From the NCBI GenBank assembly GCA_944474755.1, contig OX104120.1, positions 24,644,242-24,708,241 of the forward strand: a stretch of 64,000 nt of DNA. The letters are read 5' to 3'. This stretch comes from Limnoperna fortunei (Eukaryota; Mollusca; Bivalvia; Mytilida; Modiolidae). Below are positions 1 through 43,800 of the stretch, piece after piece (within the stretch, counting starts at the first letter, position 1; each line of letters begins with the position of its first letter). The notes under the pieces are model-generated. The model worked only from the letters and a program-made list of their open reading frames with translations. It was not told the DNA's origin and ran no database searches. The translations under genes and the position numbers were made by a program.

Positions 1-691
1 CACTTTATGAGTTTTTTATAAGTGTTTCCTCCGCTGGTTTTTTGTTGTACAGGTGCTTATTTTATTTGTTCATGTTCATGGAATACTGAGGTTTCATTTT
101 TATGTGTTGGATACCAATATTCGTGGTTTTGTGGACACTATCTATTATAAATTTAAGAATTCAACAAAGTGTTTTGTCAATGGGTGTTTAATTGACCTGT
201 AGGGTATGAACATGGCATTTAAAAAGTCAACCAGAACCAAATGTTTCCTTTCAGTGAATGAGTTTTGTTTTTAAAATATTATACTAAACAGTTAAGCAGC
301 ATTTGGATGTTTTTGGATGATAAGAAAGCAACAAGATACACAAAAAATATATTATCCTAACAGTATCATGCACAAATGTGTACCTTGATAATTAAACTGT
401 TGGTTGTGTATTTTCCTTTAAAAAAAGATAACCACAACTTATAAAGAAAACACAAAATTTTCTTTTTTCCAACTATAAGATTCACATGATAACTTTCCAA
501 AATGATCAGCAAGATAATGCCTGCAAATCGTATATTTCTGACAACTCCTTATAGATTAAATTGCCCTTAAATGACAATTTTTAGGAAATGTTCAGTTTTG
601 TTGCCCAGTTACCAAAGGACTATAACAGACAGAGTGAAACTATAAATTGCAAAAAAAAGATCTGCAATACTGATCTTTTTTGCAATTTACA
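1..691. other. Intron, no recognisable feature
   Basis: AT-rich sequence downstream (minus-strand sense) of E35. No exon with the required phase-1 entry is recognised, so the next exon presumably lies outside the window. Confidence 0.5.
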
Positions 692-1775
692 GTTAAAACT
701 TAAATATAATGAACCTCTTGTAGGTAGCGTTGTATCCACAAACATCCCTTCTAAGACACAAATGGAATGCTATAAGTTAAAACTTAAATATAACAAACCT
801 CTGGAAGGTGGCGTTGTATCCACAAACATCCCTTCTAAGACACAAATGGAATGCTATAAGTTAAAACTTAAATATAATGAACCTCTGGAAGGTGGCGTTG
901 TATCCACAAACATTCCTTCTAAGACACAAATGGAATGCTATAAGTTAAAACTTAAATATAACAAACCTCTGGAAGGTGGCGTTGTATCCACAAACATCCC
1001 TTCTAAGACAAAAATGGAATGCTATAAGTTAAAACTGAAATATAACGAACCTCTGGAAGGTGGCGTTGTATCCACAAACATTCCTTCTGAGAAACTAATG
1101 GAATGCCACAAGTTAAAACTTATTTATAACAAACCTCTAGATGGTGGTGTTGTATCCACAAACATCCCTTCTAAGACACAAATGGAATGCTATAAGTTAA
1201 AACTTAAATATAACAAACCTCTGGAAGGTGGCGTTGTATCCACAAACATCCCTTCTAAGACACAAATGGAATGCTATAAGTTAAAACTTAAATATAACAA
1301 ACCTCTGGAAGGTGGCGTTGTATCAACAAACATTCCTTCTTAGAAAGTAATGGAATGCCACAAGTTAAAACTTATTTATAACAAACCTCTAGATGGTGGT
1401 GTTGTATCCACAAAAATCCCTTCTAAGACACAAATGGAATGCTACAAGTTAAAACTTTAATAAAACCAACCTCTGGAAGGTGGCGTTGTATCCACAAACA
1501 TTCCTTCTAAGACACATATGGAATGCTACAAATTAAAACTTAAATATAACTAACCTCTGCAAGGTGGCGTTGTATCCACAAACATTCCTTCTGAGAAACT
1601 AATGGAATGCCACAAGTTAAAACTTATTTATAACAAACCTCTAGATGGTGGTGTTGTATCCACAAACATTCCTTCTGAGACACTAAGGGAATGCCACAAG
1701 TTAAAACTTAAATATAACAAACCTCTAGAAGGTGGTGTTGTATCCACAAACATTCCTTCTGAGACACTAACGGAA
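692..1775. repeat. 84-bp minisatellite overlapping the 3' end and donor of E35
   Basis: About 13 tandem copies of an 84-bp unit. On the minus strand each unit reads: last part of E35 (coding SVSEGMFVDTTPPSRG), then the donor GTTTGT and a short intron-like stretch. The rightmost copy is the real exon end; the others lie in the downstream intron. Two subfamilies alternate, marked by 'aagacacaaatgg' and 'gagaaactaatgg'. Because 84 is 28 codons, long open frames appear on both strands; the plus-strand ones are repeat artefacts. A few copies have lost the donor or gained a stop. Confidence 0.92.
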
Positions 1776-1876
1776 CAAAGTTGTGCTCCATTACAAGCAA
1801 TCAGCGTGACATAATACATAACACCATCATGTAGTCGTAGATGAGTAAAGATGTAATTCCTTACTATTCCATTCAC
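1723..1876 (-). CDS. Exon E35: module end with DTTPP linker
   Basis: Entered in phase 0 after an AAG acceptor (TTTCAAG), leaves in phase 1 at TCTAGAG|GTTTGT. It codes NYIFTHLRLHDGVMYYVTLI, then ACNGAQLC and SVSEGMFVDTTPPSRG, the standard end of a module (YYVT strand, Cys pair, DTTPP linker). The frame stays open past the donor for one more 84-bp unit, so a second identical donor with exon edge at 1639 would add 28 in-frame residues. This is the last coding exon in the window. Confidence 0.82.
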
Positions 1877-4800
1877 CTTGAAAGGATTGGCAAATAAATA
1901 TCAATACACTTTTTAATAGCTTAAATTCCTTATTGATAAATCTTACACTATAGCTAAAAAATGCATTTGGCATCATTTATTGTACTAAAAGAGCAGGACT
2001 TATTTTTTTATATAGTCGACTTACCAGGGTCCAATTAGTGAACCTAGTTTTCAATTTTTAATAAATTTTGCTTGTGTCATCTAAGGAGATACCATCTATC
2101 ATTCTGAAAATCTTAGAATATATATCACTTTAATGGTCAAATTCAAATCAATTTCTTTAAATTCAATGATTCTTTAAATACTAAGCTTTACCGAAAATAC
2201 ATTCGGTAAAGGCAACATAATGAAAATGAAACTTTAATCAAGGTAGGAAATTTTGACAAAAAAAGCACTTAAATGTTTACCGATCGGTTGACATTATAAT
2301 AAAAATTCCAAAATTTTATAGAACAGAATTATTCTAGATGTTGTTATTCTTTTCTCTATTCAATCTAAAGTGTGAAATTTCTATGCTAAGAATTATATAG
2401 TTAGCCCCTGAAAACCCTATTGTTTATTTGAAATAATGATTACTTGTAAAAAAAACTTACTATATGGCAAGTCTGATGAAAAGTCATTAACATATTTGAT
2501 TTCTGCACGACCTTTAGACTGCAGGGTACATACGGCTGCATTGTCAAAGCATATACAGCAGATAATGTGTGTATAAAGTGTGAAATGTATAGAAAAGCCT
2601 TCTATATTCTCTCCCTTTAAGCCTCATACACATATTGACTATTAGTTGACAATGTACCAGTACCGTATATGAATTTAGCTGCTACAGAAAAATGCACAGA
2701 TAATGGTCCACTTTTTTTTTATTGAGGAATTTTTTTATATTATCTCCATAAAGTAGGATATACCTCTTTATATAATACAAGTAAGACATAACAGTGTCAG
2801 TTACTAAAATGTAGCATGACCGGATAGGATATAAATTTAGTACTAAATGAACAATATATTTTTTGAACTGTATATTTCCATTTAACAAAGTGTAACAAAA
2901 TTATTCAGTGATAAATTAGCTGACCTAAAGATAAATCAAATTATCCAACTACTGTACTCCACCAAATTTAAAAGTCCATTTTTTCAAAAAGGTATGTAGG
3001 TTTTTCATAAAGCTTTTCTGGATACAATTTTTGAAAGGCCAAAATTAGACAGTATAACACAGGCACACTGTATATGAGATGATACCAGGACTAAACAAAA
3101 TTAAATCACCTGAACCGATGACAGGTCAAATTCTCCACCTATATGAGACTTGATTGACAAGTACTGCCTCTCTATGTGAGAATCCGAGTCATCAGCAGTC
3201 CATTCAACCTTCATGGTAGTCCTGTAAATCTGTGTTAGACCCTTAACACCAAAATCTGCAGGAAATGTTGGACCAGCAACAGTAGGCATGGTGTTATCTA
3301 CTTTAAAACCATTGGAAGTAGCTTCGGACCATAGACCTGGAAAATTAAAACAAAAAAATCTCACTAGAATGATGAAGTACAAGCACCATCCATACATAGT
3401 TTGTTTACATATCCACAGCACTTTAGTTTTTGGTGAACTATGCTCAATTTGCCTATTCTATAAAATATGAAAAACCCACATATTTTATGCAATATTCTCA
3501 CAAGAATTTATTAGAGTGGAAATAGATAGACTTCTAATCAACCCCAGAGGTGTTTACCCCTTTACTGTACTCCCAGTAATCCTAATTATTTTTTTCAGTA
3601 ATTTTGCACATTTATCCGTAATCTGAAACTTTGCAATAAAATGTCAGAACTTCGAACAATATTAAAAGAGTTTCTGGACAGTCTTTTGCTATAAAACATC
3701 TTTCTGATGCACATTTTAATGATCAAACATTAATAAAAACTTGTTTATTCAATATTGTAATACCTTTACAATGTTACAAAATCACAACCAAAAGCATTTG
3801 AAAGTCAATTGTAATACCGGCGGAAAGGCGTAATTTTGGGGTCCATTTCCGTGATGCGTATTTTTAGAGCAAAATTCGGAATAATTCAGGAAAATCCGTA
3901 ATGGTAAACACCTCTGCAACCCGAAGCTGGAGATTCCAACCTGTGCTTGTAATTCCACACTGTTTTGCTCGGAATTCCGCACTTTTGCACAGAAAAGGCT
4001 TGGAATTTTGGACTTTGATATTTTTAAGCACGGAATTAGCTCTGAATTTTGGACTTTGTCATTTTTTTTGCTTGGAAAATGCACGGAAAGTTGTTCTTAG
4101 AACCAGGATAGAAATTTCAAGTTAAATAATAAAGAAGTTGATGCCAACAAATTTATCATTTAGAAGTTTAGATAGTAGATTAGGACATAAGGCAAAACAA
4201 TAAATGTGGTGATGATGCAGAAGATGGATACTCACCTTTATGTTGATAAAGCTAATACACTAAATGTGTTGGCCACAGAATCATAACACCGCTTGTCAAT
4301 AAAAGATAATAATATCATAATAATATCAATACAGAGAAAGAGTGTCAAAACTCTAATTTACTATCCCTCATGTATATTTGAAATCTCTCTTGTGGTTTTC
4401 TTTTATCACAATTAGTGCATGAGCATAATTGATGGCCATGACATAGATGCTTTAAATGATGCATGTTCTTTAACAAATTTTCACAATGCAGAACTTCTAC
4501 ACTAATATTCCGAATTATGTAACAAAATGTGCACATGTTAATGCAAAATCAAAACTCTGTGGTGCCAATATCCCAAATGTGAATGGTCTAGTCTAGAGTG
4601 TACACTGTAGGAGGAATTTATTACACAAAATAGGCATGAACTCTTCAGCCCTATAACACAGCACACTGAAACCCCCATATGATTTAATGTGCACAACTAG
4701 TCAAAAATTAAAATGTCAAATGTACTAAAACTTCTTACAATTTGTTAGCATTTTATCTCAAATATCTCACCAGCTCTATTATAAGCCCTGACAGTTATAT

Positions 4801-7800
4801 ACACTGTCTTTCCAACGGGAAGCAGCGGAGACAAATCAGGAACAGCAGCTACTTGTGTAATGTACAGCTCAGTTGTTGCCATAACATCATCTCCACCTTT
4901 TGTAGTCCCGGCTCTCCATACATATTTATCCAATCCTGACTGGGGATCTTGGAATCCATACCATTTAGCAGCGATATAAGATCTAAAATTAATCTCTAAA
5001 TTAATCAGTCTAATCAATACTGCACACACTTTATAAAGCATTTCATAAAAACTGAAAGGCCTTACTAGTAACCTAATGTACTTCTAAAAAACCATTTAGA
5101 CTATATATTGGGTTTTCAGGCAAAAAAAATACAGACCTAAAATTTAAAATAAACAAAAAAAATACTTGAATGGACATTTTCCAATATATGTTTTTCATTA
5201 ATATTTGGTGGTCTGTTGTTATGTACTATTCATTACCTACCTTTACACCAAATGTTGCAATCCTACATGCATGGTTACAGAGAAACTAACCTACTCCAAA
5301 AACTTGTGTACAGTAGAGGTAGTTTAAAATGAATTTCAAGAGACTGTAGGATGCATTTTGTTATAAGCCTATTTCGTTACATGATAAATTCCATGTTTGA
5401 TTACCTCCCCTTATATATGTATTGTTTATTATGTTATAAACTGTTTGTTGTAACTAAGGTTAATTGTATTTGTTCAGTGCTTCAAACTTGTCAAACAATA
5501 TGTTGCTGAATGTTTTGATATGTTGTGTAATTTAATTTTAAAAAATCCAAGAATCATAGACACAGATGCCCCGGCTAAATGAAGTCCCAAACAGGAAGTA
5601 GTTGTCTGACAGATCTAAAAGTTGCTTAGGACGTACAACTTGTGATACTGAACCAACCTGCCAAATATCAAATTGTTCTCATGTACGGTTTCTGAGAAAA
5701 GCTTGACGGAAATTCGTACATACGGGAGGACATATTTACGTACAAATGAAGTCCCAAACAGGAAGTAGTTGTCCAACAGGTCTGAAAGTTGCTTGGGACA
5801 TACAACTTGTGATACTGAATCACCCTGCCAAATTTCAAATTGTTATCATGTACGGTTTCTGGGAAAACCTTGAAGGAAATTTATTTCGGACGTACGTACG
5901 GACAGACGGACATGAGTAAAACTTAATGGCCCCCAACATGTCGTCGCGGGGGCATAAAAATAAAGTTTTATTTGTAGTTGTAATTGTACTTATCCAAATA
6001 AAAAATGCATTTACTGGTTTTTATTATACTTGACCTGTTTGCTATTCTAATCATTAAAGTCCGTGCAGGACTGTTTTACGGTAGTCAAGGACGATAAAAA
6101 CCCCCATAAGTAAGTATTCTAATTATCTGTCCGTGCGTGACCATTTTACAGTAGTCAAGGAGTTTAAAAAAAAAAAAAGAAAGTAATCTAATCAATTTTT
6201 CAGCCAAGCAATACATAAGAAAATGCTGTTCAGTTGATTGGATATGAACTAATCAATGAGAGCTTGAAAGATCTGGTATTTTGAATCCAGATCTATATCT
6301 TTCCTCTTTTTATGAGCCATACCGAGTACTGAATAATGACGGTTATATTTCACACAGGTGGTTTATTACCTGTCAAGTACTAACTTTAGTTGTTGTCATT
6401 AAAATCAATACTTGACCGGATGTGCTCCTAACAAGTGTTAGATGTTTTCATAACAATTAATTTGTAGTTTTGTTATAACCATGTTATTTTCAACATTATA
6501 TCTGTTATGGGAACATTCAGAGTTATTCGTTATAGTCCTGATATTGTTATAAAAAATTTGTTATATACCTGAAACTGTAAGTATTATTTTTGTAATTGGG
6601 ACTGGGGATTCAATTTTACCTCCGTTATAAACCTGAATTCGTTACAAGCCTGTACCTTATAAACAAACTCTACTGTAATTACTGGACCATATAAAATTAA
6701 GGTGACTCATGTCCACCAGACTGTCATGTACTTGCTATTCATCAATCGGATCACCTCGGTTATTTCCGCCTATGGTCGGAAATTAATCTCGGAGGTAAGT
6801 GTATGGATATGGACCAAAAATCGGTCCAAATGTGATACGGTTAGCCTGTTTACACAACAACATTATTTTAATGCGATGAAATAGATTATCCTTTAATCAT
6901 TCAACTATACAGATCTTTATCGAAGCGGAACTAAAAATCTAATACAAGATTGTATTTTTTAAACTTAAATTCGCTAACACTGCCAAAAAATTCCTTCTCC
7001 GGCAACGTTTAAATGGATAAGTATTTGTTTACAATCTGACGTCATCAGTAACAATCCAATGACAAGCCAATCAAATGAATGAACTGAAACGTCACAAACG
7101 AACTTGTGACATAACAAATTCTTTGAAATCACTTAAAATAGTTCAAAATGGAGATCACTTACCTCCGAGGTCACTTTCACGACCCTTGACGGAAATGGCC
7201 AAGAGATGTTCCCACTGGCTATTCATCAGCAATATTTATACCAAATTTTTTGTCATTCTATCATGCATGGTTACTGCAGAACTGACCTTAATAGCTTTAA
7301 TATAATTACATGGCAATTAAACTTAAGTCAAGATCAGACTATCATGTATGTTACACCAGCAACCTATATACCAAGTATTATCATCCAACCACGCAAAGTT
7401 ATGGCAGAACTGAAAACTTAACATAGACACTGGACCATGAAATTGAGGTCAATGTCAGATATGACATTCTGTACCATTCCTTGTTCTTAACACTGTTTTT
7501 GTATTGAATGTCTAGATATACTCTGTCATCCTGTATGATTCCTAGTTCTTACCTCAGTGGATTATATACTGACTCTTCAGATATCCCATGCCATCCTTTA
7601 CAGTTATGTGTTCTTACCTCAGTGACTGGTACTGGATGTACAGATCTCTGGTGCCATCCAGTACGATTCCTACTTCTTACCTCAGTGACTGGTACTGGAT
7701 GTCCAGATCTCTGGTGCCATCCAGTACGATTCCTACTTCTTACCTCAGTGACTGGTACTGGATGTCCAGATCTCTGGTGCCATCCAGTACGATTACATGT

Positions 7801-10800
7801 TCTTACCTCAGTGACTGGTACTGGATGTACAGATCTCTGGTGCCATCCAGTACGATTCCTACTTCTTACCTCAGTGACTGGTACTGGATGTACAGATCTC
7901 TGGTGCCATCCAGTACGATTACATGTTCTTACCTCAGTGACTGGTACTAGATGTACAGATCTCTGGTGCCATCCAGTACGATTACATGTTCTTACCTCAG
8001 TGACTGGTACTGGATGTCCAGATCTCTGGTGCCATCCAGTATGATTACATGTTCTTACCTCAGTGACTGGTACTGGATGTACAGATCTCTGGTGCCATCC
8101 AGTAGGATTACATATGTTACCTCAGTGACTGGTACTGGATGTCCAGATCTCTGGTGCCATCCAGTACGATTACATGTTCTTACCTCAGTGACTGGTACTG
8201 GATGTCCAGATCTCTGGTGCCATCCAGTACGATTCCTACTTCTTACCTCAGTGACTGGTACTGGATGTCCAGATCTCTGGTGCCATCCAGTACGATTCCT
8301 ACTTCTTACCTCAGTGACTGGTACTGGATGTCCAGATCTCTGGTGCCATCCAGTACGATTCCTACTTCTTACCTCAGTGACTGGTACTGGATGTCCAGAT
8401 CTCTGGTGCCATCCAGTACGATTCCTACTTCTTACCTCAGTGACTGGTACTGGATGTCCAGATCTCTGGTGCCATCCAGTAGGATTACATGTTCTTACCT
8501 CAGTGACTGGTACTGGATGTCCAGATCTCTGGTGCCATCCAGTACGATTCCTACTTCTTACCTCAGTGACTGGTACTGGATGTCCAGATCTCTGGTGCCA
8601 TCCAGTAGGATTACATGTTCTTACCTCAGTGACTGGTACTGGATGTCCAGATCTCTGGTGCCATCCAGTAGGATTACATGTTCTTACCTCAGTGACTATA
8701 ATGGATGTCCAGATATCCCATACCAATGTGTACAATTATGTGTTATTACCTCAGTGACTGGTACTCACTGTCCAGATATCCCATGCCATCCAGTACGATT
8801 CCTACTTCTTACCTCAGTGACAGATACTGACTGTCCAGATATCCCATGCCATCCAGTACGATTCCTACTTCTTACCTCAGTGACAGATACTGACTGTCCA
8901 GATATCCCATGCCATCCAGTACGATTCCTACTTCTTACCTCAGTGACAGATACTGACTGTCCAGATATCCCATGCCATCCAGTATGATTCCTAGTTCTTA
9001 CCTCAGTGACAGACACTGACTGTCCAGATATCCCATGCCATCCAGTACGATTCCTACTTCTTACCTCAGTGACAGATACTGACTGTCCAGATATCCCATG
9101 CCATCCAGTATGATTCCTAGTTCTTACCTCAGTGACAGACACTGACTGTCCAGATATCCCATGCCATCCAGTACGATTCCTACTTCTTACCTCAGTGACA
9201 GATACTGACTGTCCAGATATCCCATGCCATCCAGTATGATTCTTACTTCTTACCTCAGTGACTGGTACTGGATGTCCAGATATCCCATGCCATCCAGTAT
9301 GATTCCTAGTTCTTACCTCAGTGACAGATACTGACTGTCCAGATATCCCATGCCATCCAGTATGATTCCTAGTTCTTACCTCAGTGACAGATACTGACTG
9401 TCCAGATATCCAGTGCCATCCAGTATGATTCCTACTTCTTACCTCAGTGACAGATACTGACTGTCCAGATATCCCATGCCATCCAGTATGATTCCTAGTT
9501 CTTACCTCAGTGACAGATACTGACTGTCCAGATATCCCATGCCATCCAGTATGATTCCTACTTCTTACCTCAGTGACAGATACTGACTGTCCAGATATCC
9601 TATGCCATCCAGTATGATTCCTAGTTCTTACCTCAGTGACAGATACTGACTGTCCAGATATCCCATGCCATCCAGTATGATTCCTACTTCTTACCTCAGT
9701 GACAGATACTGACTGTCCAGATATCCCATGCCATCCAGTATGATTCCTAGTTCTTACCTCAGTGACTGGTACTGGATGTCCAGATATCCAGTGCCATCCT
9801 GTACAATTCCTGCCTTTGGAGGACTGTTGTCTATAATAACACCATCAGATGACACAGATGTACACAAATCAGCTGTATTACACACAGTCACTGTGACATA
9901 GTAGATGATTCCAGTACCAAGGTGAAGGTTGTTTAGTTCAAAATCTGTATTTTAAAAGTAACACTATGACATACATGTAAAACCATATTCAAATATATCA
10001 TGAGCTTTCAGCATGCATTTAATACGTTGTAAAATTATTTTGCAAAATATAAAATTTGTATTATGAAAATTTATTTTGTCTAAATTTCAATTGTTTATTT
10101 GTTTGTTTGTTTAATGGTGCTTAAAGCCACTTTCAGCAATTTTACAGCTATATATGGGCATACAGCTTTTATTGGGGGAGGAAGCCAGAGTGGTAACAGG
10201 CTTTTTTTAATAAAGCAAGAATGCAAATAGCTTGTAAGTAAATGTTTGGTAACGCAATATTATTTTTCTTGCAATAATGACTTCAAACAATGTGTTTTAT
10301 TATAATACACTTTGTGACAGTACCAACTATCAGAAAAAAAATCAATATCAGCTTTATACAGATTTTAACCACTCTGCCACTGAGGCGCTTGGATTTTTTT
10401 TAAAGACATAATTAAACTATTTTTAGAATTGCACTAGCATAGTATCAGCATTTGGATCAAATTGACCAATGTTGAACCAATCATAAACAATCTAATGCAT
10501 TACCATGATATAGCTGAAAAATGGCTGAAAGTGGCATTAAAACACCATTCAAACAAACAAACAAAAAAAATCAAACTTCAGACAGGTGGATTTCAGTGAG
10601 GTAATAAGAACACATAAAAATTTAACATAAAGTTGCCAGGTAGTTTTTACTAAATTACAGCATCATTAGTGTTGTTCAATTAAAACATTTGAAATTAGAG
10701 AGGCAATTTATTGTTTTCCAAATTTCAGCATTTGGGAAAGAATTATAAACTAATCAATCCATAGCAGCATTTTGAAATATCATACAACAATATATAACGT

Positions 10801-13800
10801 ACCTTGTACAATCATCAATGTATGTTTGCTTTTGTTCGAATGGTGTTTAACGCCACTTTAAGCAATTTTTCAGCTATATCATGGCGTCCAGTTTTTATTG
10901 GGTGAGGAAGCCAAAGTACCAGGAGAAAACCCCAACATTCGGTAGAAAAACTGGCAATCCTTGTCAATTGAGATTGGAGTCTAGTACACCATGCCCTCAG
11001 TTAGACTCAAATCCGCAATCTCAATGTTGACAGACCACGTGATCAATAGTTGACAAACTACCTTAACAACTCGACAACCGAGGCCCCCAATCATCAATGT
11101 AAATATTGTACAACAATATATAACGTACCATGTACAATCCCTAAAGCTTGCAGACTCTGAATGTCATCAATGTAAATATCGTACAACAATATATAACGTA
11201 CCATGTACAATCCCTAAAGCCTGCAGACTCAGAAAGTCATCAATGTAAATATTGTACAACAATATATAACGTACCATGTACAATCCCTAAAGCTTTCAGA
11301 CTCTGAATGTCTGTTTGTTTGTTTGTTTGATGGTGTTTAACGCCACTTTCAGCAATTTTTCAGCTATATCATGGCGTCCAGTTTTTATTGGGGGAGGAAG
11401 CCGGAGTACCCGGAGAAAACCCCCCACCTGCGGTAGGAAAACTGGCAATCCTTGTCAATTAAGATTGGAGTCGAGTACACCCTGCCTGCAGTGAGAATCG
11501 AACCCGCAATCTCAGTGTTGACAGACCACGTGATCAATAGTAGACGAACTACCTTGACCACTCGGCCACCGAGGCCCCTGACTCTGAATGTCATCAATGT
11601 AAATATCGTACAATAATATATAACATACCTTGTACAATTCTAAAGCCTGCAGACTCAGAACATCAATGTAAATATCGTACAACAATATATAACATACCTT
11701 GTACAATCCCTAAAGCTTGAACTCAGAACATCAATGTAAATATCGTACAACAATATATAACATACCTTGTACAATCCCTAAAGCTTGCAGACTCAGAACA
11801 TCATCACAGTTTTTACAAGTTCCAGCACTGACAAAATACTCCTGGATTGCTGAGTGCGAGTCATTAAAACCCTCCCAATAAGCATAAAGAACTCTGGTCT
11901 CCGTTTGATAATCAACATCTATCAAATCTGGACTTCTTTTTCCATCATACACATTACCAGCAGTAGGGGGCGTTGTATCTACAGGAAATGCCCAGGATGT
12001 GGCAACAGATGACAGTCCAGCATTGTTAAAGGCCTGTACAAAATTTTTTAAAATTAATCGATTGAAAATATCAAGATAATATGTAGGTTCTCATTGAAAT
12101 TAGATGCAATATTTTTAAAAATCAAAAAACAAATTATATAAAATCCTCACACTGACGTAATTGTTTTGGTTACAGGTAGATAAGAATCTGCAAATTAACT
12201 TGTAGCCTTATTACTGGTACTTTAAGGAAGTAAAAGTTGTTTGATAGAAAGTGATTTAAAAATCATAACATTTATTCCCAATTCACAGTTGATCTGAACA
12301 TTCTCTTACCATTTTAGAGGCTTTGATTCCTACTATTTTACCAGTCATCTTTTTTTCCACAAATATGTAAAGTTACCATGGGAACACTTATGTATTTACT
12401 TACAATTTGAAGTTGTTTCTAAAACAATATGGAAATTCATATTGTGAAGTATTATCAGTGTACTGACATTTTTCAGCAAAAAAAATTAATTTCTGAAACT
12501 TCTATAAAAATAAATCATTTGAAAAAAATGGCTACCAGAATTATTTATCAGATCATCCATACCTCTACTGAAATATAATAGGCATGACCATCCAACAATT
12601 CCAAATGGTTATTTTCATCGGACTGGCCACATTCTTCACCAACCACAGTCATTCTTTCCATTATGTTATAGTACCCAGGCTGAGAACCAATATACCACTC
12701 ATAATGGTTGACACCACTCTCTAGATCTCCAAACACAGACGTCCAGCTGAAACAAAAATACTGCTCTAAACCATCATACATATAACACATGCAATCACAC
12801 TATTTCTGTCACACAGAAAAAATAGAAACAAACTTCCTATGCTTTATACATATACACTCTTTACACATTAAAAAAATTACATAACAGATGTTATTAAATG
12901 TATTTAAAGTTGTTTTTTTGTTTCTTCATTTAAATCAGTAGCAAAATAAGTACATTAATGCTAACTAGATATCAGTGAGATGGTACCCATCTCTGTGGGC
13001 ACCGCCGACCTTGAGGCCAAGGTCAAAGGTCATCAACCATGGTATGCGACACATCACCTTGATATTATCTACCCAAATCCAAAAATATCAAAAGCCTACC
13101 TTAAAAGATAAAAAAGTTACAACTGGGACATGAATTTGTTATTCAGAAAGCAATAATGTGACCTTAAGGTCAAAGCTCAAGGTCAAACGTCAACAACCAC
13201 GGTATGGGACACATCGCCTTGATATTATCTACCTACATTCCAAATATCAAAAGCCTATCTCAAAAGATAAAAAAGTTACAGCCCGGACATGAATTTGTCA
13301 TACAGAAAGCAATAATATGACCTTAAGGTCAAAGTTCAAGGCCAAAGGTCATCAACCATGGTATGCAACACATCGACTTGAAATTATCTACCTACATTCC
13401 AAATATCAAAAGCCTATCTCAAAAGATAAAAAAGTTACAGCCCGGACGACCTTAAGGTCAAAGTTCAAGGTCAAAGGTTATCAACCACAGTATGTGACAC
13501 AAGGCCTTGATATTATCTACCTACATTCCAAAATCAAAAGCCTACCTCAAAAGATAAAAAAGTTACAGCCCGGACACAATTAGTTCGTACGGACGGACGG
13601 ACATACTGATCACTATAGGGCGTTCGCCACAAAGTGGCTGGGCCCTAATTACTCACACAATGTTCTGATAATTGATTGTTCCCATGTCTGGAAAATTAGG
13701 AAAAAAATCCTGGAAAAATTCCATAATAACAAGTGCACAAGTTCAATACATGTGCAATCTTTCTGTGAAGTGTCAGAGATCAGGGTTGAAAACTGTAGGA

Positions 13801-31800: not shown

Positions 31801-34800
31801 AATGACTTACAGGTTGTAAATCTTGAACAAATCATATGAAGTTGTACAACTGCAGGGCTTTCAAAAGTAGGCGGAAGGCGGCGGAATTCCGCCGCCTACT
31901 CTCACCAAAAGCGCCGGCTACTTTAATGTCCAGAAAAGTAATAAAAGTTACAAAAAAATATGTGTCGTAATTCTCCTTATCTTAATTTATCGATGCCGGT
32001 AAATATCATTAGCATTACGGAAGTAAAACATGATGTTTATTTACGCTAAATTTAGATGAGAGATTTACCGGTCGCTGATTGGTCGTCTATAATTAGGGTT
32101 GATTACTCGGAAGGTTTCATCAGATATGGACGTTTATCAAACGAAAAGACCTTGAGGTGTTCCGAAAAATTAATAAAACACGAGATGTTTGCATGAAACG
32201 ATCAAATACAACCCTGTTTGGTTATGGTTTTAAGAAAACCCGAAGAGATCACACGGGTATGTTTAAAAGCAACAGAAACATTGAATACGAAGTTTATTTT
32301 TATGTTACCAGTTACCAAATCTGTAAAAACCGCCTTTATCAGGCGAACCACTTCCACAACGGATGGGTCGGTCCTAATCCTTATAAGCTGACTTGCGTCG
32401 ACTAATATGTGCACTTAAGAAAATCTCCAAGTAACAAACGGAAATATGATGTAATAAATTAAATAGAATAACAGTTGACACTTGTTACTTGTTGTCTTTT
32501 TTATAAAGCCCGGCCCACGTGGCCCAAAATATAATTTCAGCAAGACAGAAAATGTACTACAAAGTAAAAATATGAAACTCTCTGTATTGTGTAAAATGTG
32601 AGAAAAAGATGTCCATCTGAAGGACTTGTCTTTCATGTCAACTTGGTTGAAAAGGGGGATGCACCCCCAAAATATATCTATTTGGTACACTGTATCTGCC
32701 CAAATTGAAAAAAAAAATAATAATTTGCATTGAATTTGCTGCTTGCTCTATTGCAAAAACGTGAAAACTGCTGACAGTCAACTTTTATTTTATAAATGCT
32801 AATACATGTCAATAACATCACAATCATGTCAATAGAACAGAACATGAAAAAAAAATGTTTTGATAAACATGATAAAGAAAAGAAACCAAACAATTTTGAA
32901 TTAATACACTTTAATACAACTTAATTCTCAAAATGTTGTCTACTTGTCTCAAAACATCAAGCACTGAAAGAAAAAGCAACAATGAACATGTCAAAATTTG
33001 AAATCATAATAAATTGAATATACAACCTAAACTTGGCATCTCATTTGTTGATATGAGACATACAAATTTCTAAGAAGTTAGGCAAAAAGTTAAAAATTTT
33101 AAGTAAAAAAGGGTCATTTGAAAAACTAAAGTTTAGTTCCAGGAGACTGCCAGAATGCAGGATTTTGCGTTATTTACCCCAGCGCTTCTGGGGGCCTTCA
33201 GCGGCCCCAGACCCCCGGCCGAAATAGGCCCCGAGCAAGCTCGGCCGTCGTGTGTGGTTGTCTACTTTTTCTTTTGGAGACACCTACTCTAAAATTGGTT
33301 GAAAGCCCTGCAACTGATTGTGAAATGCATGGGTCAGGGTTTGAAAATCACATTTTTAAACAGAACTTACACAAGATGTTGCTCACATAGTGTTTTCATA
33401 CCAGAATCTAAAGTAAATAAATATTTATATATATACTGGTCACGGAGTAGTTCTCGCCGGCAAGTAATTCTCGCCACCCGATCTTTTGACAGTTTTTGTT
33501 AAAAATTGGCATTTTAAAAGTCACCAGCGTAATTGGTTTTGAATGGAAGATGTTGAAATCTATTAAATGATGTCTTTTCCATTGATTTACATGGAAAAAT
33601 AACGGTACAGTCACAAAAATGGCTAGACAACTATACTAATACATACTAGAGACTTGGGACCTTTGTTCGACCTTGAAATAAGCATCAGGTGTATACCATT
33701 GTTCAGCAACTGGTACAGTCCAGTAGGCATTCATTGTGTTGGTCGAGGACTGTACATCTATATCGTCTTCACAGGGTACTCTATGGTCCTATAAATAAGA
33801 TAGGCAGGTCAATAACTAATGGTTCAAGCAGTTTTATACTGAATAAAGCAAAATGAAGTGATAAATAATCAGAATTATCAACAAAAAATATATTTTCATT
33901 TGATAATCATCTCTGAAACACTTTTATAAAAGATTTATAAAAGACACATGCTAAATATTATAAGAGTTCTTTTTGGAATATATGACACAACAAAACACAA
34001 CAGATATGAGACATTATCATGTACATATCAAATAATTCCTAATAGTGAGGGCCATGAGGTGTATATATATATATGGACCGGCAGCTGATATGATATAGAC
34101 CAATGCGACCATATAATACCATAGGGCCCTCATAACATGAATCATTTGATATACTTTAAACCAACCAATTTATATCTAAAAAAAAACATATAACCATAAA
34201 TGCTTAAGGTTTATAGAAGGAAAATTTAGAGTTTTGTGGTATTTTATATAAGAAATGTTTGTAAAGCTTTAAAACCAACAAAATAAAATAAGATTTATCA
34301 ACATGAAACTAATCAATCCCAAAAAGTAGTATACAGGCCCAGAGCTAAGGGCAATATGCAACAATATTGCCTGGAAGAAAATACAAACAGGGAAAGGAAA
34401 CATGTAAAAAAAAAATAACAATATGACATTTCTTTATATGTAATATACAGTTCCGATTTTTCTTGGGGTGTAAAATGGGATATGTTAAAGTGGGCACCTA
34501 GGTTGATATGTAATTATAAAAATAAATGATATGTGTTGTCAGTATCTTAAGGGGATCAGGCAGATATGGAGGTCTCAGACTGACACAATAATTGCCATAT
34601 AATACTCTGTTAATATTTAACAAATGTGTTCAGTCACAAACTATTTATTTTTCAAATTGCAAAGATTTGTAATTGACTGAGCAGCTGTGATGAACAAGTG
34701 CATGTTGTTTGATGGCTAAAACAAGGCTACAACAAGCCTAAGTTTGGGTTATAAGTCAGGATATAACATTTCTACATGTCTGTGTTGTTGTGGTATTACA

Positions 34801-37800
34801 ACAGTTTATGGATCCTTTAACTGGTTCGACCCCATCATGTTTCATATGACTGTTACCAGGTATTTTTCCTTGCTGTTATTTGATTTGTTTTGATTTTTTT
34901 TTTTTTCTTTTTTTTTATTGATTACTTAAATTGTAGTTTTGTGTTTGGTTTCTCACTTTTTTTTAATATATCAGCAGGTATTAATAGAATCTTGTACCAA
35001 CAAATTTCAATTTAGGTCCACATCATTAATGGCTTGTATATTTTCAATAAAATACTTTTGGTATATAATAGCTTATTAATAAGATGACTGAGAGAAATTT
35101 TTATTAGTTTTATGTATTCCAAATCATGTTTGTGTTGCAAAGGGAAGTAACTCTATACAATGAAAACTGACCAATATGTTTGTTTGTCTGAATGAATGAA
35201 TGGTTTTTAATGCCACATTCAGCAATTTTTTAACCTATATCGTTTTGTCCAGTGTTTATTTGGGGCGGAATCTGGAGTACTAGGAGCAATACCCAAATGG
35301 TTGCAACTGGCCTATATATCAGATAAATTATGCAAATCCAGGAGATAAACCCAACAAACTTAAAAGTAAAATATGCACTAAGATACAACAACAAATCACC
35401 AAAAACTCATGAAAACAACTGAAAGAGCAAAATATGGGCTTACTATCAGCTTAGAACATTCACATAAACCCTTCATGTGGCAAGCAGAACAAGTTAATGG
35501 AACAACTAGCACTCGCCACAATTATACCTCTCCCAATACAGACACATAGAAATAAGTTAAAACTGGTTCATTGATCAATCAAGTATATTTCTGTCAGGAA
35601 TTTAGACAAATGAATTTTAGCAGATTAGCAATTCTCACCCTGGTCCAGTCATCAACCTATGACTAGATTGTGGAAACTCCAGCTTGGATAATTTACAGGT
35701 ATATTACATTTCTAAACTTACCTGTTCATGATGAGTGAAAATCTGACCTGCAAAAACAATTTGTGTTAAAACTAAGCAGTCAGTACAGTTTAAAGAGTCA
35801 TCAAATTGAGACACGGGAGACAACTTTTTGTATATGAGCAACAGGTAAGTCTAGAGACCTGTGTTTGGTGTCAGTCATGACACATATGGGCCATTATTAT
35901 AATTTATACAGAGGGTGTATTTAAAGCGGTACAGTTTACATGTCACTTTTCATTTATATCTTTTTAGAAACTCAATTTCTGTCCAACTTAAAAGTTATAT
36001 TTATACATATTATATTAGTTATATTATATTTCAAATAAAATGAACAATGTAATAATTTCTGTGAAAATGACTCACTTGATAAGTTACATGGAATACCATC
36101 ATAAATTTCTATTCCAGAAAGTGTTTCATATTCTGTTACTATGGCAACACCATCTGATGATACAGAAGTATTTCCAGCAGATGATATTGCTGTTACTGTG
36201 AAGAAGTATTTCTGTAAATATGTCAAACTATAAACATAACTGAGTAAAAATAAAATAACTATATTTTTAAATATTGCTCCTCTGGCAGCAGTTGCTAGTA
36301 TTTTCAAAGTAACTCTGAAGGTTTTAAATACAATTTTTAAAATGATAAACAAACATTACTTCCAGTTGAAAAAAATCATTCAGATTAATGTCATTTAGAC
36401 CTTGTTTTAAGTGTCAAAATTGTGGGAAAAAAACTAGGCAGTTGGCTAGAACTGCTCAAAAAACCATTAGAAAAATGACTAATATTCTGATAAATTCTCC
36501 CAATGTATTATAATAGAGCTACATATGCTGGATACCCATGTCAGATATGAGAGGGTCTAAATGAAAAGAGACAAACATAAAATGGAGGAGTGTTAATCAG
36601 ATCACAAGTGGAAAACTAGCCAGCTAAATTTAAACAGTAAAACTCAGAAATAGCACACTGTGGGCCATAGTTAGTTTAACCTTGACAGGACATGAACTGT
36701 GTACTTTATTATTATTTAAATTTGAAAACAAATTCATATGTCCTCATATTGTATATACCTGAAATGAATCTAGGGCAAGGCCTGCTACTTCATATGATGT
36801 ACTGGTTCCAACATCTATACTGGACACTACATCATTACCTGCAGTGGTAGTACCAATACTTATGGTATAAGTCAAGGTCAGATATGGATGACTAAACCCA
36901 AACCATCTTGCTGCAAGCACTGAAGCATCAGTGTGGAAATCTACATCCTCTATGTCCTACAACAGAAATATATAAATTTAACACCAGTATGATGTAATTT
37001 GATTCTATTGGTAAAGGAAGCCATATCAAGTATCTTTGGCAGGAAAAGGGCAATTAAGGTTTAAGGCAGTACACCCTGATTAAGTCAGACTCGACTCACG
37101 ACCAGTGTTGATACAAAGAACTAATGGTAACCAATGAACATTTGATTCTTTAGTGGAACATACTACATGACTCCATCAGTCCAAAAGTAGTTTTTTGCTT
37201 TGTTTGTTTCTTTTCTTTTTTTGTTTTGTTTTGAAATTAAATTGTCTTAAAGATATATTGTTTATTAAATATAAAGAAACTTATTCGTCTTTTGATCTTT
37301 TATGATATCTTAAACAGTTACACGTCTGGAGTGGATATTAAAGGTGTCAGAGTTTCATATATGAGGGCTGCCATATTGACAGTATTTACCACAAGATGTG
37401 CACCTTGTGATGTAGGAAGATACAGCACACATGGTCTTTACAGAACAAAATAATAAATAATCCAGTTAAAAAGATGTTTTTCTGCCTTTGCTCTTTAAAG
37501 AAAGCAAGGAACCTGTGAGCTACTGATCACTTAGTTACCTCACTATTCACATCATTGAATTGACTAAGCCGGAAAACAAGAAGTCGATATGTTACAGACC
37601 TGAAATTGGTCCTCACAATATAGGACCGCATGGTTAGGTCACATGTAAATTTCAAGTGGTTGTGATAAGAAGTTGCTGAGAAAACTGTTATGGAAGTTAT
37701 GTTGTGGATGGAAGGATGGAATGACAGAGGTAAACCAGTAAACCCCTTCAAAGCCAGGATAGATTATGAGTCAATCCTAGTGCTACGGCACTTATATGAA

Positions 37801-40800
37801 GACATTGCTTCTGAACAATCTTATCATCATTCAGAAGTTTGTGTCCAACTAAAGAAGCAGACTGCTTGAAGCAATCTCTTAAAAAAATACTGGGGTCTTG
37901 GTGGCAGTAAGTCTACTAATGATAATGTCCCCATTAGGTAAAGTTATTAGTTTCACTGTTATCAACTACCCCTAATTGGCAAGAACTGACACTTTTCATA
38001 CCAAAGTGTGAGGGTTTTCACAGAACTGGGAGTTTTCCTACCAAAGTTTGGGGTTTTTCAAAGAACTGGCTTTTTGTGGACTAAAGTTTGGGGGTTTTCA
38101 CAGTACTGGCAGTTTTCGGACTGAAGTTTGGGAATTTTTCACAGTACTGGCAGTTTTCTGACTGAAGTTTGGGAATTTTTCACAGTACTGCCAGTTTTCG
38201 GACTGAAGTTTGGGAATTTTTCACAGTACTGGCAGTTTTCGGACTGAAGTTTGGGAATTTTTCACAGTACTGGCAGTTTTCGGACTGAAGTTTGGGAATT
38301 TTTCACAGTTCTGGCAGTTTTCGGACTGAAGTTTGGGAATTTTTCACAGCACTGGCAGTTTTCGGACTGAAGTTTGGGAATTTTTCACAGTACTGGCAGT
38401 TTTTGGACTGAAGTTTGGGGGTTTTCACATAGCACTTTATATCTCTTCGAATAAAAACAAGATGCCACAAAATAACTAAAAAATTGCTGAAAGTGGCATT
38501 GAACCATATCAAACAAATAAACAAACAAATAATCAATACATAACATATATATCATATAGACAAGAGGTAAATAGATTGATTACATACCTGTAGTGGTAAT
38601 GGTTTTGTTGCATCATATTCCTGAAAAAAATGTAGGATTCAAATTTAAAAACAAAATAATCTATAAATATGAGCTAAAAGTACTGTATTTTTCAAACTAT
38701 ACAGGTACATGAAGTATATGTATGTTGTTAGACTAAGCAATGAGATTTCCATGTAGAGTTGTTTTTGATTGATTGACTGGTCCTTATGGAATTTAATGTC
38801 CAGTTGACAAATTTTCAACTATATTCAGGACATGAGCAATTAAATGTAATAACATTTATATAAATTCATAGTTTGATTTAAAATATGTGTCAAATATCAT
38901 TTATTACACAGGCAGTTGGTAACCTGATATATACACAGTAAATTTTATATTAGGACAAGCGTGTGGTGCAAGTCCACAAATAATATGTACATACTGTGAA
39001 TATCTTGTATAAGGTCAGCAAATGTATATTCTACTGACTGTCGTAAAACATTGGAATTCAAGTAAAATCCATTTTATTCAGTGTGTTTTAATGTCGTCAG
39101 GGATCCTAACTCTTACCTACTGACTGCGTATGAAATCTAATTGTGTATAGAAAAAAATGGGGTCACCAGGTGATACCAATCAACCCATTGCAGAACGCAG
39201 ATACTTTCAGGAGGTAGGATATTAATATGTGGATATATAAATATATGGAGACATCATACAACAATCTAATATGTCATATTAGGTAACAATTTTTTGTAAT
39301 TTTACCCTTTCATCTAAAACCAAAGCAAAAAATGATTGTGGATGTTTCAGATGACAATATTTCAAATTTACTCTAAGAAAAAGACTCAAAATCAACAAAA
39401 CACACACTTTATAAATTATGTTACACATTTCATGTAAAAATTGCCCACAGAAAGCAATAAGAATGCTAAAACATTCTGTATAATAAAATAAATAACATAT
39501 AGATGGCAGGGTAATAAATCAGACTGGTACCCGTCAAAAAAGCATTGTCAGCCATCGACTAGTTGACAAAATATTTCTCAGCTCCTACAAATCTGTTAAT
39601 AATGTATACAAACTGAACTTGGATAAAAACAAAGTATTTTAATTAGCAACAGTAAGAAATAACTAAATAACTGTGATATATATAAATAATAAAAAACCTT
39701 ACATTAGGGTCAAGGTCAAACACTACTCCTTTTGCAGGCAGCTGTACATTATGTATATATGGTTCAGTGGATTTGATCGTTACCAGCCCAGCTGTATTGG
39801 TTACTTTGATAGAAACATAGTACTTGTGGTTACCATGCAGGGACCAATCTAATGTTCCAATATTAACTGCTGTACAAGTAGGCGTGGCAATGTCTGTACA
39901 TGTACCACCTGTAGACAGGGGTCTATACTGCTGTATCTGTGTACCTAAGATTGTCTCACCTAGAAACATATACATGTAAAACAGACTATAATTAGATCTA
40001 AATACAATGATTCAGAAACTATATACAGCTTATTATTCAATCTGGATTATTGAATTTTCCGGAATAAGAGAACAAGACTTTAAGATGTGGATGCACTTTA
40101 ATTTCAAGAATCTATTCAAGGAAATTTGTACATCAGCATAAAAAATCATTTTAAACTATAATAACTCTTGTGTTTATGTCATAGCGATAAATATATAAAA
40201 ATACTTTTGTTTTTCAAGACGGAACCAGAATTAAATATGTGTATACCGATTGCAAACTCATATGACAAATCAAATAGCTCCTCGCTGTCTGAGAATGATC
40301 CACTGGCCCATTCTGTTATCAGGTACTGACCAGACAGGTGCAGAGTTATGGTGCCCATAAATCTTGGTGGAGTGGTGTCCATAAAACAAGGACCAACAGT
40401 CTAAAAATAGACACAATTTTTGGTGACATATTTCTTTTGATTTAGATACTTACAAGAGTTAAATGTGACAATTAATTTTGGAAGTCAGAGTACTTGGGTG
40501 GGAAGCATCAAATTAAAGAAAAAAGATTGAATAACCATTGATAACTTGAATATTACAAGATTTTCACTCTTCCAGGGTCTGATTGTTTGTTTGAATGGCT
40601 TTAACACCACTAACTCCAATTTTTTTCAGCTATATCATGGGGTCAATTTTTTGTGGGGGGAGGAAGACTGAGTACCCGCAGAAAACCGCTCACCTGCAGT
40701 AGGAAACTGGCAATCCTTGTCAAATAAGATTGAAGTCAAAAATTAATATTATGTAGCTTACTTTATACAAACAGTTTTGGTGTACACTAAAGATGTTCTT

Positions 40801-43800
40801 TATACTTTCACTTACCACTGTTCCCTCCACATTTGAATTACTTATTCCTTTTACTTACCACTGTTCCCTCCACATTTGACCCACTTATTCTTTTTACTTA
40901 CCACTGTTCCCTCCACATTTGACCCACTTATTCCTTTTACTTACCACTGTTCCCTCCACATTTGAATTACTTATTCCTTTTACTTACCACTGTTCCCTCC
41001 ACATTTGACCCACTGATTCCTTTTACTTACCACTGTTCCCTCCACATTTGACCCACTTATTCCTTTTACTTACCACTGTTCCCTCCACATTTGACCCACT
41101 TATTCCTTTTACTTACCACTGTTCCCTCCACATTTTACCCACTTATACCTTTCACTTACCACTGTTCCCTCCACATTTGACCCACTTATTCTTTTTACTT
41201 ACCACTGTTCCCTCCACATTTGACCCACTTATTCCTTTTACTTACCACTGTTCCCTCCACATTTGACCCACTTATTCCTTTTACTTACCACTGTTCCCTC
41301 CACATTTGACCCACTTATTCCTTTTACTTACCACTGTTCGCTCCACATTTGACACACAATCCTTTTACTTACCACTGTTCCCTCTACATTTGACCCACTT
41401 ATTCCTTTTACTTACCACTGTTCCCGCCACATTTGAACCACTTATTCCTTTTACTTATCACTGTTCCCTCCACAATTGACCCACTTATTCCTTTTACTTA
41501 CCACTGTTCCCTCCACATTTTACCCACTTATACCTTTCACTTACCACTGTTCCCTCCACATTTGACCCACTTATTCCTTTTATAATCACATAAAATTTCA
41601 TTCCATTAGGAATATTTGCATGTTGTATTCTAATATGTGGATTCTGCCTTGTTGATGTAAAAGCCATCAGGTCCGGGGCGGCACTTCCTGCGGTAGATGC
41701 AAAACCTACTTCATAGTCATAAATCTTGGCAGGCAAAGTGTCAACCAGCCAGGATATAGAAATCTGAAAATTACATCAGTACAAAATAAACATAACACTG
41801 AAACCTGTATAACCCAGCCCCTAAACCAATCTGAATTTTGTGTCCAAAGAATATTAATTTTCAGTCGCAATATTATAAATTTGTGTAAACTGATAATGTG
41901 TTAACCAAATACCTGTCTAACATGGACAAATATTTCAGCACTAAAGGTGCTCTGTTTGAACAGATTCACTGTATGAAAGAAAAAAGTAAGTTTCATTCTC
42001 TAATAGCAGCAAAATCAGTATTGAGATCATTGTCTAACTATCCTCTAGATTAATAGTAGAGCTTCAATGCCTAGATATTCCATCAACAATATCAGACAAA
42101 TACTAGACACACCCGGTGCTCATTTAAGTCAATAGTAAATACATAAGAGGAAAAGATGTACAAATTTGTTTAAAACAAGTTATTTTAAAAAATCGAAGAA
42201 TGTGTCCGTGGGACACAGATGCCCCCGCTAAATGAAGTCTCAAACAGGAAGTAGTTGTCTGACAGTTCTGAAAGTCGCTTAGGATGTACAACTTGTGTAC
42301 CGTTTCTGAGAAAAGCTTGACAGAAATTTATATGTACGTACGTACGTATGGACAGACGGACATGAGTAAAACTTAATGCCCCCCGACATGTTGTCACAGG
42401 GGTATAAAAATATTGTTTTTAAATAATAATTTCAATATAAGCCCAATTCCTTTAAATGTGGATAATGAATTTTGATAACGTTAGAAACACAAACATTATG
42501 TTAAAATTAACCACTTTTTTATTGAACTTTATAAAGCCCTGAGCTCAAGCTAAAACTGTTGCATCTTCTGACTGATGACTTCAAAACCAAACCTCCTGAT
42601 GACTCTGGTAAATCTAAGCAACACTGACAATGCCAGCTTCTGTAATATTCTGACCAAGGACCAAACTACAGTTTGTATTGTGATATGTTAGATGTATATA
42701 CAATTGTTACATGTATATAAAATTGTAGGATTTCAAATAAAATATGTTTAAACTTAAGCATAGCTTCAAAGCCAACTTGAAGTTGGATTTAAGATAAAAA
42801 GTATATTCACTGGAGAAAAATCAACAATGTTTACAATAAAAGTAATTACTTGCCATATTTGAAGTTGACAATGCCAGACCAGAACTGACAGGAGCACCCG
42901 TTGAGTTAATACAGAATATAGCACCATCTACTCCTACAATGGATCCATCACTTTGTCTTTGTATAGGATAAAGATCGAGATCACTTTTAACTGTGGCTTT
43001 GACACTGTAAAGAAACATCATGGTATAAAAATCGAAAAACCTAATTTGTAAATACAGTATATAGTTTGGTAAAGTTTAGGAGGAAAATACAAATGTAAAT
43101 TGTTCAATGCCTTTATATTTTTATACAAAAATTGAAAAAATCAATGAAAAGTATATTTAAATTCATTTGTAGATAAAACATTGCAGAAAGAGTGTAGTTG
43201 AATCAAACTTTAACAGGGATGGCAAGTTTTTCTGGGTACTCCAGCTTCACCTCCCCCCCCCCCCATCTTAAAAAATTGGATGAAATGATACAGCTAAAAA
43301 ACTGCTGAAAGTGGCATTAAACCACCTTCAACAATCGACTCAAACAATAATTAATCTGCACAATTACAATAAATATAATTAAAATTTCATTAGTGTATCG
43401 TTTCTTACATTTAGCTGAAACATTCAGTAATATCAAGAATAAAAAAATTCTTACATGCTGCAAACACCTTTAAAATTTAAAAAAAAGACTGGACATTTCT
43501 CTAAGTACACTTTTATCTACAATTTTTTATATCTAAATACTGTAAATACTATTTCACTATTTTGAGTATTCTATGTCCAATACAACTCCAAGTGTACAAA
43601 AAATATGGCTCTTGAAACGTAAAGAATAAAACTGACATGTTCCTTTTATAATTAAACAGCATGTGGTGATGAATATTCTTTGATAACTCAAAAGTATAGA
43701 CATACAAGCAATCTATGGTTGGATTAGTTATCTGTCTACGAGTTCTATCAGATGACAGGATCCAATAGCTGGAATTACTAACATCCACCATTAAACCTGT

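What the first reader, a model, noticed from the sequence alone, without database searches (positions are those of the whole stretch)
692..41590. Five independent minisatellites in one gene, each built from an exon's 3' end plus its splice donor
Seen: the arrays at 692-1775, 7510-9830, 11089-11800, 25995-28995 and 40805-41590 have unrelated units (84, 63, ~70, 75/95, 43 bp). Yet each unit contains the last codons of the adjacent exon (E35, E32, E31, E23, E14) followed by its 5' splice site. Every array lies downstream of the functional donor on the transcribed strand, and most copies keep GT plus consensus bases. Other intronic arrays in the same gene (38, 44-47, 50.7 and 56 kb) copy no exon. 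Known: tandem duplication across an exon-intron edge is a proposed source of new splice sites and introns. Inference: five events in one gene suggest a repeated process, such as breaks or template switching at exon 3' ends, tolerated because the first donor in the transcript wins. I know of no named system of this kind.
Basis: partly seen in the sequence, partly recalled or inferred. Interest (0 to 1): 0.9.

Follow-up and report, generated by a model that had tools for sequence, protein, structure and literature searches.

The report
Mussel minisatellites copying exon ends
In a mussel gene, several repeat arrays are built from the tail of an exon plus its splice site, and the same thing turns up in related and unrelated genes of that genome; similar "mirage" repeats are already known in lancelets, so this looks like a new and dense case rather than a new kind of system.

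Summary
The minus strand carries 33 recognisable exons of a large mussel protein; its Mytilus trossulus relative (68% identity) fixes the five exon ends in question. Each array (units 84, 63, ~70, 75/94, 43 bp) holds an exon's last 37-55 nt, its 5' splice site and 6-32 nt of intron. Own-genome DNA outside the window gave 7 more donor-spanning arrays (1 in this gene, 6 in two paralogs). Pooled: 12 donor-spanning and 2 acceptor-spanning among 78 arrays and 126 exons, against 3.6 expected for each by random placement. Arrays on exon tails of unrelated genes (IFT172, STK11 at two exons, DMAP1, otoferlin-like, DUF547) show it is not family-specific. In 9 of 12 arrays an in-frame stop precedes donor 2, so a full-length protein needs the first donor there. 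Such repeats have a name: amphioxus "mirages". Best reading: small tandem duplications across the exon edge, later expanded, tolerated because the first donor is used. Unexplained: donors exceed expectation, acceptors do not, and 207 of 208 extra copies keep the donor GT. Array-level enrichment genome-wide was not settled.

The parts
691..1775 (-). Array A1: 84-bp unit x12.9; first copy = last 53 nt of exon 1723-1876 + GTTTGT donor, 31 nt of intron
   Evidence: exon end confirmed by P0001
7501..9811 (-). Array A2: 63-bp unit x36.7; first copy = last 54 nt of exon 9758-9944 + GTAAGA donor, 9 nt of intron
   Evidence: P0001 continuous ..YQSLR|SYIS..
11091..11803 (-). Array A3: ~70-bp unit; first copy = last 38 nt of exon 11766-12033 + GTATGT donor, 32 nt of intron; interrupted by an inserted element
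28436..28977 (-). Array A4, donor-anchored block: 75/94-bp unit; first copy = last 55 nt of exon 28923-29081 + GTAAGT donor, 20 nt of intron
26026..26624 (-). Array A4, distal block with the same unit, separated from the anchored block by about 1.8 kb
40805..41582 (-). Array A5: 43-bp unit x18.1; first copy = last 37 nt of exon 41545-41763 + GTAAGT, 6 nt of intron
1723..63404 (-). Host gene: 33 exons found, FN3-like extracellular protein by its relatives' names; the 3' part continues below the window
   Evidence: 3' part
44388..47201 (-). 39-bp array starting 66 bp downstream of the donor of exon 47267-47476; overlaps no exon
38015..38419 (-). 41-bp intronic array, overlaps no exon (comparison)
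50728..50907 (-). 56-bp intronic array, overlaps no exon (comparison)
56047..56597 (-). 27-bp intronic array, overlaps no exon (comparison)

Best explanation
These are mirage-type minisatellites. A short tandem duplication (units seen: 24-138 bp) crosses an exon-intron edge, so the exon tail, the 5' splice site and a little intron are repeated (shown: the structure, and a two-copy stage sharing 4 bp at its ends). The copies then expand and partly homogenise by slippage or unequal exchange (inferred from copy numbers up to about 93). The duplication is tolerated because splicing uses the first donor in the transcript, so later copies fall inside the intron (inferred; in 9 of 12 arrays a stop would truncate the protein if a later donor were used). 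A duplication across the acceptor can be tolerated in the mirror way, but is seen less often. Exon-anchored arrays may also stay recognisable longer because their first copy is held by coding selection (inferred). Why donors exceed random expectation 3- to 6-fold while acceptors do not is open.
For: Arrays and exon ends. Recurrence in the same gene and two paralogs. Placement tests: all periods 12 of 78 arrays against 3.57 (3 of 20000 trials reach 12); loci outside the window alone 7 of 57 against 2.34 (P=0.0076), or 6 of 44 against 1.21 for periods 20-120 (P=0.0008). Acceptors 2 against 3.62. Two-copy stage in paralog 18.31 at 22674-22775 sharing TTTA (sequence). Stops before donor 2 in 9 of 12 arrays, 6 of 12 unit lengths not divisible by 3. 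Unrelated genes. In lancelets RT-PCR suggested that mirages do not disturb splicing (PMC3087553, passages).
Against: Donor GT kept in 207 of 208 extra copies, against about 27 losses for a random dinucleotide of the same units (P=0.005) or 16 for other GTs (P=0.008): more constraint than idle copies should show. For periods 121-500 there is no donor excess (1 of 19 against 1.71). At the level of arrays the genome-wide pattern test showed no excess in the small listed part (6 donor-pattern and 6 control-pattern arrays in C1:0-6.70 Mb). No RNA data and no orthologous DNA from another mussel.
Confidence: 0.75

Rival explanations
1. Chance: this genome is so full of minisatellites that some land on donors; the reader noticed a lucky cluster.
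For: Arrays are dense: a random intronic point lies in a local duplication about 20% of the time. Acceptor-spanning arrays occur at about the chance rate. The window's all-period P is 0.005, before allowing for post hoc choice. Listed array counts for donor and control pattern are equal, 6 and 6.
Against: Replication in loci chosen without regard to arrays: P=0.0076 for all periods, 0.0008 for periods 20-120. Donor and acceptor counts differ, 12 to 2.
Confidence: 0.1
2. The donor copies are functional: back-up, decoy or alternative donors (or U1 snRNP binding arrays), kept by selection.
For: GT kept in 207 of 208 extra copies. A1 and A4 units are multiples of 3 and open in frame past donor 2. 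A first-pass gene finder, without homology, called 36-nt in-frame cassette exons in A1, and an M. edulis model repeats 15 aa at the same exon end (P0008). Titles and passages link minisatellites with splicing: the human 6-16 minisatellite (title seen as a citation only) and C. elegans CeRep25B (PMC4039745, passages).
Against: In 9 of 12 arrays use of a later donor would truncate the protein. Selection on each of some 90 similar copies is implausible. The retention test treats columns as independent although array copies are related.
Confidence: 0.12
3. Hot spot: something about transcription or splicing at 5' splice sites (pausing, R-loops, breaks) makes tandem duplications arise there.
For: Donor but not acceptor excess. 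Units hold more exon than intron in 10 of 12 arrays. Five more arrays start 7-66 bp downstream of a donor without spanning it.
Against: Selection against acceptor duplications, or longer persistence of exon-anchored arrays, could give the same counts. No breakpoint or mutation-rate data.
Confidence: 0.2
4. Exon ends are mis-assigned and the arrays are coding repeats.
For: A1 and A4 are open in frame for more than one copy; some mussel protein models seem to read through such arrays.
Against: P0001 crosses all five junctions without inserts; 6 of 12 units are not multiples of 3 and 9 of 12 arrays carry a stop before donor 2.
Confidence: 0.03

Closest known systems
Amphioxus 'mirages' (Adh3, globins BflGb6 and BflGb9, troponin C, similar repeats in PGBD5; PMC3087553 and PMC3902484, passages seen)
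   Same: Minisatellite-like tandem duplications spanning an exon-intron edge, at 5' or 3' boundaries; units 10-160 bp; many copies keep splice signals; concerted evolution.
   Different: Here in a mollusc; six donor-spanning arrays and one acceptor-spanning array in one gene; copy numbers up to about 93; donor bias measured. Length and somatic instability and undisturbed splicing, reported there, were not testable here.
Human 6-16 (IFI6/G1P3) minisatellite with multiple splice donor sites (Turri et al. 1995; title seen as a citation; paper not held)
   Same: By its title, a minisatellite that supplies several donors.
   Different: Nothing beyond the title was seen; details are recalled, not read.
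Internal tandem repeats at exon-intron boundaries of human segmental-duplication genes (PMC2812944, passages seen)
   Same: Minisatellite expansion at exon-intron boundaries, affecting splicing or intron formation.
   Different: Found as copy-number differences between recent paralogs; no donor-over-acceptor comparison in the passages seen.
[quoted passage not shown] potato RdRp case, PMC4974935, passages seen)
   Same: Tandem duplication across an exon-intron edge.
   Different: There a duplication of an intron's 3' side and the next exon's start makes a new intron; here no new intron is shown.

Membership tests
Mirage minisatellites | Tandem repeat unit that spans an exon-intron boundary | tested here: met
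   12 donor-spanning and 2 acceptor-spanning arrays
Mirage minisatellites | Either boundary, 5' or 3', can be duplicated | tested here: met
   Acceptor-spanning arrays in the own gene's 3' part and in paralog 17.97
Mirage minisatellites | Unit length about 10-160 bp | tested here: met
   24-138 bp for donors, 61 and 154 bp for acceptors
Mirage minisatellites | Many copies retain splice dinucleotides | tested here: met
   GT in 207 of 208 extra copies over 11 array blocks
Mirage minisatellites | Normal mRNA splicing is not disturbed | not testable with these tools
   No RNA data; in-frame stops are only indirect support
Mirage minisatellites | Length polymorphism, somatic instability | not testable with these tools
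   One assembly only
Intron gain by tandem duplication | A new intron arises in the duplicated stretch | tested here: inconclusive
   The gene model needs no extra intron at the arrays, but intron positions of another species were not available
Coding tandem repeats | Array read as protein in frame | tested here: not met
   Stops before donor 2 in 9 of 12 arrays; 6 of 12 units not multiples of 3; A1 and A4 are open for one or two further copies

The most novel reading that the evidence does not exclude
In this mussel the 5' splice site is itself a birth site of minisatellites: a process tied to transcription or splicing makes tandem duplications at exon 3' ends across the genome, and the growth or survival of copies depends on an intact GT, so donors, but not acceptors, seed arrays in very many genes.
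Probability: 0.2. Interest if true: 0.85.

Novelty: new member of a known kind. Interest (0 to 1): 0.55.

Why it matters
In the passages seen, mirages are described gene by gene in lancelets. A mussel genome in which one gene holds six donor-spanning arrays, and unrelated genes hold more, would make it possible to measure how exon edges are duplicated, whether donors are hot spots, and how splicing copes with dozens of near-identical competing donors. It also warns that gene predictors may read such arrays as protein, as seems to have happened in several Mytilus models.

Tried and rejected
Coding-repeat reading: rejected. Shared exon positions between paralogs as evidence for hot spots: two seen (B1/C1, A2/B2), which a hand estimate put near chance, so not claimed. 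Comparing donors with random intronic points (donors 11 of 126 spanned, acceptors 2 of 126, random intronic points about 20%) is misleading because random points often fall deep inside long arrays; array placement is the fairer test. The control pattern ATGAAGGT contains AAG|GT and is a poor control; it gave 1636 matches and its backward form 565, against 6257 for the donor pattern and 2562 for the backward donor pattern. Match counts are dominated by long arrays; by arrays, the listed part C1:0-6.70 Mb held 6 and 6. An acceptor pattern did not complete. Neighbouring DNA above the window held mobile-element-like frames and one family exon, and no gene I could use. Rows dropped before counts: arrays with period under 20; exon hits inside arrays or duplicating an earlier copy; arrays B1 and C1, with too few extra copies; whole-exon and in-exon placements were excluded from the null. 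Exon ends outside the window were set by a script from alignment ends and a splice-site score and were checked by eye only where an array touched them. Window arrays number 20 and 21 because the merging differs. An unrelated-gene sample chosen without regard to arrays was planned and not obtained.

Full report
The gene. The minus strand of the window carries a large gene. A homology search with the predicted protein listed 28 relatives at E<=0.001, best the M. trossulus uncharacterised protein LOC134684607 (P0001, 68% identity over the best local alignment). I placed 33 exons: exons 6-33 by P0001, exons 1-5 by other relatives and less surely. They read open in three blocks, exons 1-5, 6-24 and 25-33; at least one exon between 24 and 25 was not found, perhaps because of the 200-N gap. 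The window lies at G000:C10:24644242-24708241 of a 1.34-Gb genome, where the family's long exon was hit at 16 places (16 of 542 candidates scored, so a lower bound). Pfam matches to FN3- and Ig-like domains are below cut-off.

The five arrays. TRF finds all five. Laid out by unit each begins inside an exon. Exon/intron parts of the first copy are 53/31, 54/9, 38/32, 55/20 and 37/6 nt. All five exon ends agree with the unbroken P0001 sequence. The units look unrelated to each other.

Is it chance? In the window 20 arrays with period >=20 were counted; 5 span a donor, none an acceptor. Random placement allowing at most 1.3 units of exon at an edge gives 1.2 on average and >=5 in 100 of 20000 trials. 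I then took the rest of this gene and two paralogs, chosen by their long exon and not by arrays. They hold 7 more donor-spanning arrays (own gene 85 bp x3.4; paralog 17.97: 138 x2.6, 114 x9.2, 24 x16.3; paralog 18.31: 49 x2.1, 37 x93.1, 50 x12.1) and 2 acceptor-spanning ones (own gene 61 x17.7; paralog 17.97 154 x2.8). The 24-bp unit holds only about 5 nt of exon. Outside the window alone: 7 of 57 arrays against 2.34 expected (P=0.0076), acceptors 2 against 2.36; for periods 20-120, 6 of 44 against 1.21 (P=0.0008), acceptors 1 against 1.23. Pooled: 12 donor-spanning of 78 arrays over 126 exons against 3.57 (3 of 20000), acceptors 2 against 3.62; for periods 20-120, 11 of 59 against 1.87 (0 of 10000), acceptors 1 against 1.86; for periods 121-500, 1 of 19 against 1.71, no excess. 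So donors are in excess for short units; acceptors are not.

Beyond the family. A genome-wide search for three AGGTAAGT at 38-68 bp spacing gave 6257 matches; the same pattern read backwards gave 2562. A second pattern of the same composition gave 1636, and backwards 565. Matches are inflated by long arrays: by distinct arrays the listed part C1:0-6.70 Mb had 6 donor and 6 control arrays, so array-level enrichment is not shown; that control contains a donor-like AAG|GT. What the list does show is where donor arrays sit. I fetched the 5' flank of each of the 11 distinct arrays listed (C1:0-10.24 Mb). Six follow an exon tail recognised by homology: IFT172 (E=1.6e-11); STK11 (L039, E=5.8e-14); a kinase exon about 6 kb upstream (L040, PF00069 1.9e-15; best PDB hits GCN2 4.4e-17 and STK11 6.1e-17), by place and order most likely the same STK11 gene; a DUF547 protein (PF04784 6e-10); DMAP1 (PF05499 7.7e-8; 4.3e-5); an otoferlin-like protein (1.7e-4). 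For DMAP1 the copies resemble the exon tail only roughly and follow a weaker first donor. Three more (L036, L037, L041) have a frame of 29-45 aa open to the donor but no recognised family (L036 was not compared with PDB), and two (L033, L034) show no coding frame. These 11 were selected for donor repeats, so they show presence in unrelated genes, not a rate.

Other mussels. In predicted family proteins, near-tandem copies occur in 5 of 19 Mytilus sequences (P0002, P0003, P0006, P0008, P0031) and in 1 of 14 other molluscs (P0043, a long C-terminal repeat of another look). P0006 and P0008 map onto exon 3' ends of the window's own model; the other three map near exon ends in the gene's 3' part, less exactly. 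They look like read-through of similar arrays, but no DNA was available. Two non-molluscan relatives, P0017 and P0028, also have repeats, of another kind.

How it works. The two-copy array in paralog 18.31 shares TTTA at the duplication ends (read), as small microhomology-mediated duplications do. In 9 of 12 arrays the exon's frame meets a stop before the second donor, and 6 of 12 units are not multiples of three, so a full-length protein needs the first donor there; A1, A4 and A5 are the exceptions, of which A1 and A4 could extend the protein in frame. Units hold more exon than intron in 10 of 12. Five more arrays start 7-66 bp downstream of a donor without spanning it. These facts fit either a birth bias at exon 3' ends or a filter plus longer survival of exon-anchored arrays.

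An unexplained point. Beyond the first copy the donor GT is kept in 207 of 208 copies over 11 array blocks, while other dinucleotides of the same units would lose about 27 (P=0.005) and other GTs about 16 (P=0.008). Copies are related by descent, so this is a hint, not proof, that GT matters in the copies.

Literature. [quoted passage not shown] PMC3902484, one passage). They occur at both boundaries, vary in length, and RT-PCR suggests normal splicing. Human genes in segmental duplications show tandem repeats at exon-intron boundaries (PMC2812944, passages); a potato gene gained an intron by a duplication across an intron-exon edge (PMC4974935, passages); a C. elegans minisatellite is linked with alternative splicing (PMC4039745, passages); a human interferon gene has a minisatellite with several donors (title as citation only); human introns from tandem arrays (Zhuo et al. 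2007, title as citation only). I saw no report of mirages in molluscs in the listings of searches; only 32 (15 of 587 papers listed) and 77 (no paper) named mussels or bivalves, and the library lacks most subscription papers.

Verdict. Real, recurrent and present in unrelated genes; best filed as mirages in a mussel, dense and donor-biased. The cause of the bias and the GT retention are the interesting open parts.

Noticed in passing
window 26620-28458: The ~1.8 kb between the two blocks of array A4 is flanked by direct repeats (97% identical over 496 bp as extended by script, though the match may run into array sequence); looks like a short LTR-type insert into the array.
   Followed up: partly
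window 11078 and 11311-11589: Copies of an element starting GGGGCCTCGG..CCGAGTGG interrupt and flank array A3; it reads like a tRNA-derived SINE (from memory), but ARAGORN finds no tRNA in the window.
   Followed up: partly
window 42854: Exon 42854-43004 appears to end at a GC donor (TATG|GCAAGT), the join that keeps phase and matches P0001.
   Followed up: partly
window 691-1775: Copies in A1 carry an acceptor-like TTAG or TCAG before the exon part; a first-pass gene finder called four 36-nt in-frame cassette exons there, and M. edulis model P0008 repeats 15 aa at the same exon end.
   Followed up: partly
L009-L013, reverse-complemented join, 3779-12782: A 9-kb intronic array, 43 bp x207, in the 3' part of the same gene.
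   Followed up: no
L009-L013, reverse-complemented join, 19029-20240: Acceptor-spanning array (61 bp x17.7): the acceptor next to the exon is presumably the one used.
   Followed up: partly
window 13018-13575 and 58730-59319: A ~159-bp tandem repeat with a very similar unit occurs twice in the window, so probably a dispersed repeat.
   Followed up: no
G000:C1:6837900-6844900: What looks like one STK11/LKB1 gene has donor-spanning arrays at two different exons.
   Followed up: partly
L029-L032: DNA above the window holds frames resembling reverse transcriptase and other mobile-element proteins (by eye), and a 118-bp tandem repeat at two places.
   Followed up: no
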